Positions 13,886 through 50,475 of a stretch of 51,105 nt of DNA are shown piece after piece. Under the pieces are notes generated by a model that was not told where the DNA came from, did not search any database, and worked only from the letters and a program-made list of their open reading frames with translations. A program made the translations under genes and the position numbers. This stretch comes from Akkermansia muciniphila (GTDB taxonomy: Bacteria; Verrucomicrobiota; Verrucomicrobiia; Verrucomicrobiales; Akkermansiaceae): the NCBI GenBank assembly GCA_945901795.1, contig CAMDLP010000020.1, positions 1 to 51,105 of the forward strand, written 5' to 3'. The number at the start of each line of letters is the position of its first letter. Within the stretch, counting starts at the first letter, position 1.

Positions 13886-13909
13886 TGCTGAAAAACTGAA
13901 AAACTGAAA
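13886..13909 (+). repeat. Octamer tandem repeat before ppk1
   Basis: TGCTGAAA, AACTGAAA, AACTGAAA stand in tandem in the 40-base gap between the Ppx-HD gene and ppk1. The same octamer family forms a longer array at 29938-30001. Confidence 0.75.
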
Positions 13910-19635: not shown

Positions 19636-19712
19636 TGGTGCGCCTGACTGGATTCGAACCAGTGACCGCCCGCTTAGAAGGCGGGTGCTCTATCCAACTG
19701 AGCTACAGGCGC
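19636..19712 (-). tRNA. tRNA-Arg (anticodon TCT)
   Basis: On the minus strand the 77-nt gene begins GCGCCTGTAGCTCAG and ends in an encoded CCA. The acceptor stem pairs GCGCCTG with CAGGCGC, the anticodon stem pairs CCCGC with GCGGG around the loop CTTCTAA (anticodon TCT), and the T arm has GGTTCGAATCC. It reads AGA/AGG codons. It is convergent with the MCE operon and abuts its last stop codon. Confidence 0.97.
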
Positions 19713-29937: not shown

Positions 29938-30001
29938 AGCTGAAATGCTGAAAAACTGAAACGCTGAAACGCTGAAACGCTGAAACGCTGAAACGCTGAA
30001 A
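29938..30001 (-). repeat. Octamer tandem repeat (CGCTGAAA)n
   Basis: Eight consecutive 8-bp units: three variants (AGCTGAAA, TGCTGAAA, AACTGAAA) then five exact CGCTGAAA. Read on the minus strand it gives SVSAFQRFSVSAFQ-like peptides, which explains the false N-terminal extension of the esterase gene. Confidence 0.95.
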
Positions 30002-47182: not shown

Positions 47183-47806
47183 ATGACTCCCGACCAACCA
47201 TCCCTCGAAGCGGACCTTCGCGAACTCCATGCCGCCGTGCTCGACGAAGCCCTGCTCGCACGACTCGAAGCCGCCGCCGACGGGACCTTGACGCGGCTCA
47301 GCCCCGGAGAAATCCGTTTTGAGGAGCTGCTCCGCGGATCTTCGCCGGCAATGCTTTCACCCGCATTTTTCGCGACTCTGGAATCCATCGTCCGCGAAGT
47401 CCCCTTCCCCGTGGACGAAAAGATCCTGCTGTTCCCGAAGGCCGTTATCCGCGCGCGCCGCCCCCGCCCGATCTGGGGCGCGGCCGCAGCCGTCGCAGTG
47501 ATCGGCGCCATCACCGCGCTCATGGTCCCCGCGACTAAAAGCCCCGTGAATCCCGCCCGTCAGGTAGCCCAAGCATCGCCGCCTGTCACCAGCGCCGCCA
47601 ATCCGAATTTCGCTCCCGCCAGTTTCAACCGCGGGCTGAGCGAGGTCCACGATGAGGGAGTCGTCTGGAAATCCAACAACCAGCCGCACACCGTGGTCCG
47701 CGTCGTTTACAAGGACTTGATCACGATCAAGGATGCTAACGGAAGAACCTTCCAGGTCGAGCAACCGCGCGTCGAATACATGCTGGTCCCCGCTAAAACC
47801 GATTGA
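47183..47806 (+). CDS. Single-pass membrane protein, likely anti-sigma factor
   Basis: A 207-aa protein. The cytoplasmic N-terminus (about 1-95) is acidic and helical (ADLRELHAAVLDEALLARLE). One membrane segment lies at about 97-115 (IWGAAAAVAVIGAITALMV). The periplasmic part ends in a small beta-rich stretch (VVRVVYKDLITIKDANGRTF). I do not recognise a known zinc anti-sigma motif (HxxxCxxC is absent). The anti-sigma role is inferred from its place directly after the ECF sigma gene and from its topology. Confidence 0.75.
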   Translation: MTPDQPSLEADLRELHAAVLDEALLARLEAAADGTLTRLSPGEIRFEELLRGSSPAMLSPAFFATLESIVREVPFPVDEKILLFPKAVIRARRPRPIWGAAAAVAVIGAITALMVPATKSPVNPARQVAQASPPVTSAANPNFAPASFNRGLSEVHDEGVVWKSNNQPHTVVRVVYKDLITIKDANGRTFQVEQPRVEYMLVPAKTD

Positions 47807-47860
47807 GCCGGAAATTTTCAAACAAAAATCCAGGGTGACCTCGATTCCAGTCAACTAGCC

Positions 47861-48832
47861 ATGAAGACTCACAAATTGCCATTCGTCACCGCCGCGTTCG
47901 CCGCTTTGACCATGCCGGCCTTCGCTCTCGAAGCGCCCGAGGATGACGCGCCGCCACCAGCCGTCGCGGAAAAAAAGGACGCCAAACTACCCGAGATCAA
48001 ACTTCAAGCCGAGGACATGCCCGCGCCAAAAGCGCAAACCGCCTTCCTCGGCGTCGTCTCCGGCGATGTCCCGGAAATGCTCGCCGACCATCTCGATCTG
48101 AAGCCCGGCGAGGGGGTCTTGGTTAGATCGTTGGTCCCCGACGGCCCGGCCGCCAAATCCGGAATCACCGCCAACGACGTGATCCTCCGGGTCGCCGGCC
48201 GGGAAATCGGATCGGCGGCGGCGATTTCGGAGGAAATCGCGACCCACCAACCGGGCGACACCATCGCCATCGATCTCATCCACAAGGGCAAATCTACCAA
48301 GCTCGATGTCACCTTGGGCATCAGGCCCGCCGCGATCGCCGGCTTGGAGCCACAACAACTCGATCCGCGCAACCTCGACGGCCTGCCGAAGGAACTGGCC
48401 GACCGAATCCGTCAGGCCATCGAGGGCAACCTCGGCGCAATGGATCTCAATCTCGGAGACCAAGGGCTACAAATGGAGGACGCCCTGCGCGACATGAAAA
48501 AGCGCATGGAGGGAGCCATGGGCAAAAATTTCCTGCCGCCGGAAGCCGCTAACGGGCAACCACAAATCCAAGGCGCCGCCACGGTTAGAATGATGGACCA
48601 GCAGGGAAGCGTGGAAGTAAAATCCAAGGATGGCGGCAAGGAAGTGACGATCCGCGACCAGCAGGACAACATCACCTGGAGCGGCCCGTGGGACACCGCC
48701 CAGGACCGGGCCGCGGCTCCCGACGACGTGCGCCAGCGGGTGCAAAGCCTCAATCTCGACACCCATTTCAACGGCAACGGCCTGAGGCTGCAAATGGGGC
48801 CGGGCGCCCAACCGGGCTTCCCCGACAACTGA
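47861..48832 (+). CDS. Secreted PDZ-domain protein
   Basis: A 323-aa exported protein with signal peptide (FVTAAFAALTMPAFALE) and a single PDZ domain (about 62-155). Its carboxylate-binding entry is FLGVVSGDVPEML, and the core is VRSLVPDGPAAKSGITANDVIL in parts (VLVRSLVPDGPAAKSG; NDVILRVAGREIG). The remainder is low in recognisable structure, with a Met-rich helical stretch (ALRDMKKRMEGAMGK). No protease triad is present, so it is probably not DegP-like itself but a binding or sensing subunit. It ends the sigma/membrane-protein/PDZ set and is followed by a strong terminator. Confidence 0.85.
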   Translation: MKTHKLPFVTAAFAALTMPAFALEAPEDDAPPPAVAEKKDAKLPEIKLQAEDMPAPKAQTAFLGVVSGDVPEMLADHLDLKPGEGVLVRSLVPDGPAAKSGITANDVILRVAGREIGSAAAISEEIATHQPGDTIAIDLIHKGKSTKLDVTLGIRPAAIAGLEPQQLDPRNLDGLPKELADRIRQAIEGNLGAMDLNLGDQGLQMEDALRDMKKRMEGAMGKNFLPPEAANGQPQIQGAATVRMMDQQGSVEVKSKDGGKEVTIRDQQDNITWSGPWDTAQDRAAAPDDVRQRVQSLNLDTHFNGNGLRLQMGPGAQPGFPDN

Positions 48833-48862
48833 CCACACAACATTTTTTCATGGAGATGGGTT

Positions 48863-48905
48863 CACACCCGCGTTCGGCAAGTGTCCGGGCGCGGGTGTGT
48901 TTTTC
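48863..48905 (+). terminator. Intrinsic terminator after the PDZ gene
   Basis: CACACCCGCG (48863-48872) pairs perfectly with CGCGGGTGTG (48890-48899), followed by TTTTT. It lies 30 bases after the PDZ stop, closing the sigma-factor operon. Confidence 0.9.
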
Positions 48906-48934
48906 CCGGCCACGGCCCTGCCAGGGTCGGAATA

Positions 48935-49090
48935 TCAGCGCATGACACGAACCCGGTAGAACCGCTTCATTACGTTGGAGATGGTCGGATCGTTGACCTG
49001 CACAACGCCGGGGGGTGCGCGGGTGAGATTCGCGGCGAGCACCGTCCATTCGGAGGAGGGATAGTCACCGTCACTTTTCTTGAACGCGTA
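48935..49090 (-). pseudogene. C-terminal remnant of a secreted Verrucomicrobia-type protein
   Basis: The minus strand reads AFKKSDGDYPSSEWTVLAAN, LTRAPPGVVQVNDP, TISNVMKRFYRVRVMR and a stop at 48935. The 'WTVLA-NLT...DP...RFYRVR' ending is typical of large secreted proteins of Verrucomicrobia that finish in a beta-sandwich domain. A stop at 49091-49093 cuts it off upstream, where the palindrome and repeat array begin. Only about 51 codons remain. Confidence 0.65.
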
Positions 49091-49105
49091 TCACAAGCCT
49101 TGTGA
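49091..49105. repeat. Palindrome TCACAAG-C-CTTGTGA at the left edge of the repeat array
   Basis: A perfect 7-bp inverted repeat with one central base, flanked by CGCG on both sides (CGCGTA before, CGCGCG after). It marks the boundary between the gene remnant and the array. Confidence 0.8.
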
Positions 49106-49109
49106 CGCG

Positions 49110-49364
49110 CGTCGAAACCCCCGTTACGCGATGTCAGAACCCCCGTTACGCGATGTCAGAACCCGCGTTACGCGATGTCAGAACCGGCGTCACGCGATGT
49201 ACGGACCCCCGTTACGCGTGGAACGATTGCCTGTTCCCGATGTACGGACCCCCGTTACGCGTGGAACGGGTGCTTGTTCCCGATGTACGGACCCCCGTTA
49301 CGCGTGGAACGAGTGCCTGTGCACGATGTCAGACACCCCGTTACGCCATGTCCGGGTGCTTGTG
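49110..49364. repeat. Tandem array with 22-bp and 43-bp periods (anchor CGTTACGCG)
   Basis: The anchor CGTTACGCG or a close variant starts at 49122, 49144, 49166, 49188, 49210, 49253, 49296 and 49339. Spacing is exactly 22 bp four times, then exactly 43 bp three times. Short units read GAACCCCCGTTACGCGATGT plus CA. Long units carry in addition TGGAACG(A/G)(T/G)TGC(C/T)TGT. Since 22 and 43 are both one more than a multiple of three, each unit shifts the frame by one, and all three plus frames stay open through it; none is a credible protein. There are no unique spacers, so it is not a CRISPR. Confidence 0.95.
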
Positions 49365-49387
49365 CGCCAGGTAACGCCCACCTGGCG
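49365..49387. repeat. Hairpin CGCCAGGT-AACGCCC-ACCTGGCG at the right edge of the array
   Basis: A perfect 8-bp stem with a 7-base loop immediately after the last array unit. A further inverted match links the array to its right flank: TGCACGATGTCAGACA (49320-49335) recurs as its exact reverse complement at 49435-49450. Confidence 0.85.
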
Positions 49388-49480
49388 GGGAGGAAAAGCG
49401 CCGCAACCGGCCTCCCCGTGTCAGAAGTCACGAATGTCTGACATCGTGCATGGACTGCGATTGACGCGCCCCTTAAGGAG

Positions 49481-49500
49481 GCACCACACTCCTGTGGTGC
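49481..49500. repeat. Hairpin GCACCACA-CTCC-TGTGGTGC
   Basis: A perfect 8-bp stem with a 4-base loop, 90 bases upstream of the SNase-HhH gene. There is no T tract. It may be another small dispersed repeat or an RNA element of the downstream gene's leader. Confidence 0.7.
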
Positions 49501-49590
49501 AGGCGGCTGCGAAATCACGGGAAAGCGCGAAAGCTCTTCCCCGTGCCCCCATCCGCCCTGCGACCGGAGCGTCACAGCTTCCCTCCTCTT

Positions 49591-50475
49591 ATGAAATCAC
49601 CCGCAGTTTACACCCCGCTCATCTCCCTCGTCGCCTGGGGCTTCCTTGCCGCGACCGGCTATGCGGCGGATCCACTGGTGGCGCTTCGCGGCTGCAAATT
49701 CATCCCTAACGAATGGGCGGATGGTGACAGCTTCGAAATCCAAGCGGTAGATGGGGTCCACCACACGCTCCGCCTCTATGGCGGGGACTGCATCGAGTGG
49801 CATGTCAACGACGAGAACGACGCCCGCCGGCTGCGCGAGCAACGACGCTATTTCGGGATCGCGGAATACGGCGGCTCACCGCAAGCATCCATTGATGCCG
49901 CCAAAGCCGCCGGCAAGAGCGCCGCCCAAGAAACCGCCCGCGCCCTTTCAAAGCCATTCACCGTCCACACCGCCTTCGCCGATGCCCGGGGTGACGGCAA
50001 ACACAAGCGCATCTATGCGTTTGTCACCACCGCTGATGGGCAGGATCTGACGGAACGCCTGGTCAAAATGGGCCTCGCACGCGCTTTCGGCGTCTATCGC
50101 GAAACGCCGACCGCCAAGTCGGCGAAGGATTATCAGGAAAATCTCCGCGATGCGGAACTCATCGCCGCCAAAGCCGCTTCCGGTGCCTGGGCCAAAACCA
50201 ACTGGGACAAGCTCTCCGCCGAACGTCAGGAACAACGAAAGGAGGACTCGGAACTCAGCCTGGCTGCGGGAACCGGCAAATCTTCCAAGGTCTTCAAAAT
50301 CAATCCCAACACCGCCGCCCGCGACGAGCTGATGAAGCTCCCCGGCGTCGGCGAGGTCACTGCCAACCGGATCATCGCCGGGCGTCCCTACAGAAAAGCG
50401 GCCGATCTGCTCAAGGTGGAGGGCTTCGGCACGAAAACCCTGGAACGTCTCATGCCTTATCTTCAGCTTCATTAG
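49591..50475 (+). CDS. Secreted nuclease: SNase-like domain plus ComEA-type helix-hairpin-helix
   Basis: A 294-aa exported protein (signal LISLVAWGFLAATGYAA). A staphylococcal-nuclease-like domain follows (about 35-175): GDSFEIQAV, LRLYGGDCIEW (Arg and Glu matching the nuclease R35/E43 pair) and KHKRIYAFV (matching R87). The C-terminal 60 residues are a ComEA-like helix-hairpin-helix DNA-binding module (INPNTAARDELMKLPGVGEV). A linker rich in charged residues separates them. It probably cuts or processes DNA outside the cytoplasm. The start ATG 49591 fits the signal peptide. The small membrane-protein gene starts 9 bases downstream. Confidence 0.88.
   Translation: MKSPAVYTPLISLVAWGFLAATGYAADPLVALRGCKFIPNEWADGDSFEIQAVDGVHHTLRLYGGDCIEWHVNDENDARRLREQRRYFGIAEYGGSPQASIDAAKAAGKSAAQETARALSKPFTVHTAFADARGDGKHKRIYAFVTTADGQDLTERLVKMGLARAFGVYRETPTAKSAKDYQENLRDAELIAAKAASGAWAKTNWDKLSAERQEQRKEDSELSLAAGTGKSSKVFKINPNTAARDELMKLPGVGEVTANRIIAGRPYRKAADLLKVEGFGTKTLERLMPYLQLH

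What the first reader, a model, noticed from the sequence alone, without database searches (positions are those of the whole stretch)
49091..49450. Regular 22/43-bp repeat array framed by palindromes
Eight anchors (CGTTACGCG) are spaced exactly 22, 22, 22, 22, 43, 43 and 43 bp. The left edge has a 15-bp palindrome and the right edge an 8-bp hairpin, and a 16-bp part of the last unit recurs inverted at 49435-49450. Every unit shifts the reading frame by one, keeping three frames open, so protein coding is unlikely. Spacing of two and four DNA turns suggests a phased protein-binding array, or a structured RNA in the leader of the SNase-HhH gene. I know of no feature class with this pattern.
Basis: seen in the sequence. 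Interest (0 to 1): 0.65.

Follow-up and report, generated by a model that had tools for sequence, protein, structure and literature searches.

The report
Dispersed 21/22-bp intergenic minisatellite element
The regular 22/43-bp array is real, but it is one copy of a non-coding tandem repeat that is scattered between genes in this bacterium and some of its relatives and changes length by whole units, much like known small repeat elements in other bacteria, so it is probably not a special switch for the neighbouring nuclease gene.

Summary
In detail: eight anchors, spaced 22x4 then 43x3 bp; 43 is a 22-bp unit plus a diverged 21-bp unit, giving 12 adjacent units at 49107-49366. It is not unique. 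Related arrays lie at two other places in the same genome and give hits in 10 of 73 genus genomes searched (own included); a sample of 141 genomes of the order gave the own genome only; phage, plasmid and viral searches gave none. In relative G079 arrays lie at about 15 places, 13 of them matching at least one arm of a ~600-bp element whose best copies have ~15-bp terminal inverted repeats. At one shared site three species keep 8, 3 and 3 units. The arrays are very probably not coding, are not consistently structured as RNA, and have different neighbours. No array lies before the same gene in the two closest relatives, and the structured stretch between array and gene is a second, REPIN-like dispersed repeat. 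Best reading: a minisatellite-bearing, probably parasitic, miniature element of the BrickBuilt/BOX kind, resized by slippage or unequal recombination; the window copy itself shows no ends. Oddity: G079 also carries tandem arrays of unrelated sequence with the same 21-bp period, one between the same ends.

The parts
47861..48832 (+). Upstream gene, PDZ-domain protein
   Evidence: ORF; Pfam PDZ_2 E 2.4e-13
48863..48899 (+). Terminator-like hairpin with T tail after the upstream gene
   Evidence: consensus scan, (15 pairs, 11 G-C)
49080..49115 (+). Left-edge predicted hairpin, containing the 15-bp palindrome 49091-49105
49107..49128 (+). Degenerate first unit (22 bp)
   Evidence: parser score 8.6 bits
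49129..49216 (+). Four type-A units of 22 bp (about CGATGTMMGRACCCCCGTTACG)
49217..49345 (+).
49346..49366 (+). Last type-B unit (21 bp)
49365..49387 (+). Right-edge hairpin, 8-bp stem, 7-nt loop; possible counterparts in G000:C13 and G024:C330 were matched by eye only
   Evidence: sequences
49435..49450 (-). 16-bp exact inverted copy of 49320-49335
49454..49575 (+). REPIN-like dispersed structured repeat between array and gene; separate from the array
49591..50475 (+). Downstream gene: Staphylococcal-nuclease homologue with helix-hairpin-helix
   Evidence: SNase 25.4 bits, cut-off 21; HHH_3 E 9.7e-14; start 49591 read from the sequence, the searches used 49594 onward

Best explanation
The array is one copy of a dispersed, non-coding, intergenic minisatellite family whose unit is a 21- or 22-bp sequence, the 21-bp form an imperfect palindrome. 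The family is carried, or was once carried, by miniature non-autonomous mobile elements (clear ends in some copies of one relative; a shared left segment in two other genomes; no ends recognisable in the window copy). Once in place the array grows and shrinks by whole units through replication slippage or unequal recombination, which keeps the spacing. Shown: dispersal, unit structure, unit-number difference at one shared site, defined ends in G079 copies. Inferred: that transposition brought it here, that slippage or recombination drives the length changes, and that it is mainly parasitic rather than serving the nuclease gene.
For: A second array (85% over 167 bp) lies at G000:C13 between sulfate-permease and UvrD genes and a 3-unit remnant before DnaJ at G000:C28. 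Model R1 gives hits in 10 of 73 genus genomes (six, the own included, supplied its training units; G061 only at E 0.0093), with 55 hits at about 15 places in G079, and only in the own genome among 141 of the order at E 0.001. In G079 one full copy finds 44 BLAST pieces; 13 of the 15 array loci match at least one of its arms, and the terminal motifs (..CTAATCCGCAGTT.. / its right-end counterpart) were found at both ends of three of those 15 (L093, L100, L104) and of two further copies (L190, L201). At the DnaJ site G012, G010 and G000 share the right flank with 8, 3 and 3 units. Thirty of 36 scanned loci gave 207 units, 164 of 175 neighbour steps at 21 or 22 bp, reversed-sequence control 0 clusters (the parser allows only 21- and 22-bp units, but Tandem Repeats Finder gives the same periods on its own). 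G000:C13 and G024:C107, at different sites, share 338 bp at 76%.
Against: The window copy has no leader (one search found one in the own genome only at C13), no terminal motif near the array (21 loose matches in the window, 14.7 expected, none at 47611-49597), and its flanks match no other element tested beyond 24 bp. No transposase with matching ends was found (four solitary ends examined). A 5-bp duplication (ATGAT) was seen by eye at one G079 copy; other copies show none. No empty site was shown: upstream genes differ in relatives, so absence may reflect rearrangement. Unit sequence and spacing are kept between species, which simple decay would not predict. Several neighbours act on nucleic acids (SNase-HhH, UvrD, MmeI-type enzyme), not tested for enrichment.
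Confidence: 0.72

Rival explanations
1. A phased protein-binding array: each 21/22-bp unit is an operator-like palindrome, two helical turns apart, bound cooperatively by a dimeric protein (nucleoid, partition or repressor type).
For: 104 unique B units are palindromic about positions 12/13: 50% Watson-Crick on average against 20-26% at slid axes. The four core pairs do not covary (z -0.6 to -2.7), as expected for two half-sites each held to its own consensus; two outer pairs do exceed shuffles (4-21 z 3.2, 6-19 z 3.6). Periods of 21, 22, 42 and 43 bp prevail in the arrays.
Against: Loci differ in unit number and neighbours. Four consecutive 22-bp steps drift about 4 bp from a 10.5-bp helix. 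No hit in 63 of 73 genus genomes, some incomplete and searched with strict filters. No binding protein identified.
Confidence: 0.14
2. A structured RNA, either the array itself or its leader position before SNase-HhH.
For: Fold z-scores on the unit strand: window -3.2, G000:C13 -3.5, others to -6.5 (60 shuffles each). Right-edge hairpin may keep pairing in two other copies (by eye).
Against: G012 and G022 arrays: z 0.3 and 0.1. No Rfam match over threshold at the array. No covariation in core pairs. Palindromic repeats fold well by construction. No sigma-70-like promoter found in 48700-49800, though the scan covers only that promoter type.
Confidence: 0.06
3. A coding repeat: 21 bp is 7 codons and one frame reads as heptapeptides in pure 21-bp arrays.
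For: Open frames over arrays: 21 of 26 loci have an overlapping frame of 80 aa or more, the longest (817 aa, L035) running on into an MmeI-type enzyme whose domains start at residue 499, after the array. An in-frame 21-bp array lies inside an alanyl-tRNA synthetase gene of G079. One antisense frame over the G073 array has a weak match to DUF7470 (30.9 bits).
Against: 22-bp units shift frame in the window, G012, G024 and C13 arrays; single-base slips occur in G079 (L097, L098). Of seven frames over arrays scanned five had no Pfam family, and of nine frames from G079 elements eight had none and one a borderline match. Both strands are often open, as in stop-poor G+C-rich repeats.
Confidence: 0.02
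4. Assembly or binning artefact: contigs of a metagenome-assembled genome mis-joined at the repeat.
For: The window's genome is 120 contigs at 95.39% completeness; the array sits where synteny with relatives breaks.
Against: The array has diverged units, the same family gives hits in nine other assemblies, and the order of its last units is shared with C13.
Confidence: 0.03

Closest known systems
BrickBuilt MITE of Porphyromonas gingivalis (PMC4596501; abstract, outline and 12 passages seen)
   Same: Tandem units of fixed length (23 nt) without spacers, between a leader and a tail with short inverted-repeat ends; found 19 times in one strain, always intergenic; no transposase remnant; a strain with only 1.5 units at one site. 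The 464/PgRS element there has similar ends but unrelated 41-nt repeats, as G079 has unlike arrays with like ends.
   Different: Different unit sequence and length (21/22 bp), different host, palindromic unit, mixed 21- and 22-bp units; ends seen only in G079 copies, not in the window copy; promoter activity, shown for BrickBuilt, untested here.
BOX elements of Streptococcus pneumoniae (PMC3049150; 12 passages seen)
   Same: Modular: boxA and boxC around a variable number of boxB units; judged parasitic and non-autonomous; some large copies have open frames on both strands.
   Different: Module sequences not compared; end modules not recognised in the window copy.
REP/BIME and REPIN repeats with RAYT transposases (PMC3733652; 12 passages seen)
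   Same: Short palindromes in extragenic clusters; reported in a verrucomicrobial genome (O. terrae).
   Different: No GTAG or CGTC tag consensus in the unit tables; head-to-tail 21/22-bp spacing; Y1-transposase matches (PF01797) are in 71 of 73 genus genomes, so they do not track the array.
MIRU and other bacterial minisatellite VNTRs (recalled; papers only listed)
   Same: Interspersed loci with variable unit number.
   Different: Unit length and sequence; host.

Membership tests
[quoted passage not shown]
   Window copy: no terminal motif near the array and flanks unlike other elements. Other copies of the family in G079: present at both ends of L093, L100, L104, L201. So the window copy is not filed as an intact MITE.
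[quoted passage not shown]
   ATGAT flanks one G079 copy; other copies with both ends show no match (by eye). Not testable in the window copy.
[quoted passage not shown]
[quoted passage not shown]
   Frames over the window array and over six G079 array elements have no Pfam match at E 0.01; other copies not scanned.
Minisatellite / VNTR | Tandem units of about 10-100 bp (definition recalled) | tested here: met
Minisatellite / VNTR | Unit number varies at one locus | tested here: met
   DnaJ site: 8, 3 and 3 units in three species. Strain-level variation not testable here; the window site itself not testable.
REP/BIME | GTAG or CGTC tag beside the palindrome | tested here: not met
   Unit tables show a CGATG-type flank, no GTAG or CGTC consensus.
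BOX element | boxA-boxB(n)-boxC module sequences | not tested
   Modules not compared by sequence.
CRISPR array | Repeats separated by unique spacers | tested here: not met
   Units are adjacent, no spacers.
Rfam-described RNA | Match above gathering score | tested here: not met
   only a tRNA at 19639-19712; two sub-threshold hits outside the array.
Operator or partition-site array | Specific binding protein | not testable with these tools
   Needs binding experiments.

The most novel reading that the evidence does not exclude
The period, not the sequence, is what is kept: these genomes generate or retain tandem arrays of unrelated sequence with a unit of 21 bp (two helical turns), some between the same terminal repeats. 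That would point to a duplication mechanism or a DNA-wrapping protein with a 21-bp step, with the window array one product of it.
Probability: 0.17. Interest if true: 0.62.

Novelty: new member of a known kind. Interest (0 to 1): 0.36.

Why it matters
It adds a minisatellite element family in Akkermansiaceae MAGs for which my searches found no description, an independent counterpart of BrickBuilt and BOX, and warns that a regular 'phased' array seen once in a window can be an interspersed repeat. If the 21-bp period proves independent of sequence, the set of arrays in G079 would be a natural test of what fixes minisatellite unit length in bacteria.

Tried and rejected
Coding repeat: see rivals. 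CRISPR: no spacers. RAYT as the mobiliser of the array: 71 of 73 genus genomes match PF01797, so no association with the 10 array carriers. Transposase with the G079 ends: the four solitary ends examined (L185-L188) led to other 21-bp-class arrays or to contig ends; no transposase recognised, and three frames from L186 and L187 had no transposase match in Pfam. Shared core motif over all 15 array types: profile score 135.4 against shuffles 129.4, sd 2.9, maximum 137.1, so not established; the mean pairwise score (10.27 against 9.93, sd 0.10) exceeds all 100 shuffles, but several types are visibly related. Unit hairpin covariation: none in the four core pairs, some in two outer pairs. RNA leader of SNase: 49454-49575 is structured and kept in three species (4 double-changed pairs of 40, but 9 pairs broken or gapped in one sequence), but its model gives hits in 30 of 73 genomes at E 0.1, up to 40 per genome, often on both strands of one place and limited by the number of candidates scored, so it is a dispersed palindromic repeat. 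Of 31 sources (the window and 30 SNase loci) only the window, L155 (the same place), L156 and L157 have strong hits. A loose regular expression for it gave noise; its output was cut, and in the visible part only L157 was a true copy. Literature searches for this repeat or host listed no description of it; the library holds open-licence papers only, and I saw listings.

The 21-bp survey: arrays with at least 2.8 copies, score 70 or more and period 10-60: G079 400 kb, 10 arrays, 4 at 21 bp and one at 20 (41); G000 851 kb, 9 arrays, 4 at 21, 1 at 22, 1 at 42; G003 plus G077 400 kb, 1 array, at 21. Two of the G000 21-bp arrays (L225, L240) lie in long reading frames. Numbers are small, the G079 and G000 samples contained places already known to hold arrays (G079:C4; the window), and the controls were two genomes only.

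Limits: the BLAST table was cut in the output, so I repeated the comparison for the window flanks alone with eight elements. The parser allows only 21- and 22-bp units.

Full report
Observation. The array is real and stands out. Eight anchors (six exact, two with one mismatch) are spaced 22, 22, 22, 22, 43, 43, 43 bp; six exact anchors compare with 0.36 expected by chance. Parsing with two unit profiles shows 12 adjacent units at 49107-49366: type A, 22 bp, CGATGTMMGRACCCCCGTTACG, and type B, 21 bp, about CGATGWMCGGGTGCCYGTGCG. The 16-bp inverted copy is exact.

Surroundings. Upstream is a PDZ-domain gene followed by a terminator-like hairpin at 48863-48899. Downstream is a Staphylococcal-nuclease homologue with a helix-hairpin-helix. 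No sigma-70-like promoter was found between 48700 and 49800. Homologues of the nuclease at E 1e-20 are in 47 of 73 genus genomes. In G010 and G012, the closest (87-88% identical protein), DNA homology to the window starts only at about 49406 and 49448, with different sequence upstream and no array in the stretch held. So the array lies at a break in synteny. No empty site could be shown.

The array is a dispersed family. In the own genome a second array (85% over 167 bp) lies at C13 between sulfate-permease and UvrD-helicase genes, and a three-unit remnant lies before a DnaJ gene at C28. A sequence-only model of two units (R1, 22 training segments from six genomes, the own included) gives hits in 10 of 73 genus genomes at E 0.01 or better, one of them weak (G061, 0.0093); in a sample of 141 genomes of the order only the own genome has hits at 0.001. 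Both searches used strict filters. A degenerate pattern for the leader segment of several elements gave six stretches in the collection of 84,980 species genomes, all titled Akkermansia or Akkermansiaceae MAGs, and none in viral contigs. BLAST of the array against phage and plasmid records, and a two-unit pattern against viral contigs, gave nothing.

Anatomy in relatives. Several elements begin with a leader (about AATTCGATCCCGAGG...CCCGTGTTTCC) followed by units. The window copy lacks it. G000:C13 and G024:C107, at different sites, share 338 bp at 76%, including an AT-rich stretch left of the leader; 51 bp of that region recurs at 84% beside a G079 array. In G079 one full copy of a ~600-bp element finds 44 BLAST pieces. 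Of the 15 G079 array loci fetched from the R1 hits, 13 match at least one arm of it; both terminal motifs were found in three of the 15 (L093, L100, L104) and in two other copies (L190, L201). The left end reads CCTCTAATCCGCAGTT and the right end AACTGCGGATTCTAGG, with variants. Some copies have no array (for example L196). One copy shows ATGAT on both sides; others do not (by eye). The window has no such ends near the array, and its flanks match no other element tested beyond 24 bp.

Unit behaviour. In 30 of 36 loci scanned the parser found 207 units in the orientation of the unit; of 175 neighbour steps 145 are 21 bp, 19 are 22 bp and 11 are 41-44 bp. The parser allows only 21- and 22-bp units, so this is partly by construction, but Tandem Repeats Finder gives mainly periods of 21, 22, 42, 43 and multiples at these arrays on its own. 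The reversed-sequence control gave no cluster. At the DnaJ site G012, G010 and G000 align in the right part and flank, with 8, 3 and 3 units; G010 lacks a block of whole units that G012 has. B units are palindromic: 50% Watson-Crick about the axis at 12/13 against 20-26% at neighbouring axes; the four core pairs do not covary, two outer pairs do (the 104 unique units include close relatives). RNA folding z-scores on the unit strand range from -6.5 to +0.3 over ten arrays, two near zero. By a simple reading-frame caller the arrays lie between the main frames, but 21 of 26 loci also have an overlapping frame of 80 aa or more. Of seven such frames scanned, five had no Pfam family, one (L035) is the open upstream part of an MmeI-type enzyme, and one has a weak DUF match. 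I take most as stop-poor frames.

Mechanism. The best-supported account is a minisatellite carried by miniature, non-autonomous elements and resized by slippage or unequal recombination. Dispersal, a unit-number difference at one site and, in some G079 copies, defined ends are shown; transposition into this site and lack of function are inferred. A binding array stays possible; a SNase-specific RNA leader is unlikely. The structured stretch at 49454-49575 (4 double-changed pairs of 40 in three species) also proved to be a dispersed, largely palindromic repeat: its model gives hits in 30 of 73 genus genomes at E 0.1, eight hits at six places in the own genome and 39-40 hits in four others, often both strands of one place. 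Its GGAG-flanked hairpins look like REPINs (recalled comparison).

Known relatives. BrickBuilt of Porphyromonas gingivalis has leader, 23-nt tandem units, tail and short inverted ends, 19 intergenic copies, and a fellow element with like ends but unrelated 41-nt repeats (PMC4596501: abstract, outline and passages). BOX of Streptococcus pneumoniae has end modules around variable boxB units and was judged parasitic (PMC3049150: passages). REPs of the GTAG type are reported in Verrucomicrobia (PMC3733652: passages), but the unit lacks those tags.

An open oddity. G079 carries other tandem arrays with a 21-bp period and unlike units, for example CTGACAGCGCCTGGGAATTGA (11-17 copies in L186, L187, L197), GGCTTAAGTGTCGATTACGGA (12 copies, L188) and a short array of about 21-bp units inside a ~190-bp copy with both G079 ends (L190). 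The first has 86 pattern hits in G079, 6 in G076 and none in the other 71 genus genomes. In samples, 21-bp-class arrays make up 5 of 10 (G079, counting one of 20/41 bp), 6 of 9 (G000, two in reading frames) and 1 of 1 (controls). A shared core over all types is not established. This is compatible with, and does not prove, a preference for a two-turn period.

Verdict. It is a new member of a known kind, interest 0.36.

Noticed in passing
window 49454-49575: REPIN-like dispersed structured repeat directly before the SNase-HhH gene; eight hits at six places in the own genome and up to 40 hits in relatives. Kept at this site in three species.
   Followed up: partly
L186, L187, L197 (G079): A second tandem family with 21-bp units CTGACAGCGCCTGGGAATTGA, 11-17 copies; L186 and L187 have the same right terminal repeat as the array element nearby; 86 pattern hits in G079 and 6 in G076.
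   Followed up: partly
L212:12200-12360 (G079:C4): A 21-bp tandem array in frame inside an alanyl-tRNA synthetase gene.
   Followed up: no
L226:12394-12600, L233:370-492, L230:5970-6174 (own genome C5, C12, C9): Further tandem arrays of 21 or 42 bp with other units; only short frames (at most 167 aa) cover them.
   Followed up: no
window 29939-30001 and 13888-13909: 8-bp tandem repeats GCTGAAAC and CTGAAAAA; TTTCAGCT-type repeats occur in G079.
   Followed up: no
L045:940-1440 (G073): Element with two leaders and a run of about eleven 21-bp units GACGAACGGGAGTCCCTGCGC beside a DEAD-box-like helicase gene (named by eye); G022 has a shorter array beside the same gene.
   Followed up: partly
L035 (G024:C330) and L036 (G015:C24): Array remnants directly upstream of similar starts of reading frames in two species; in L035 the frame is an MmeI-type restriction-modification enzyme, in L036 the similar frame looks short (by eye).
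   Followed up: partly
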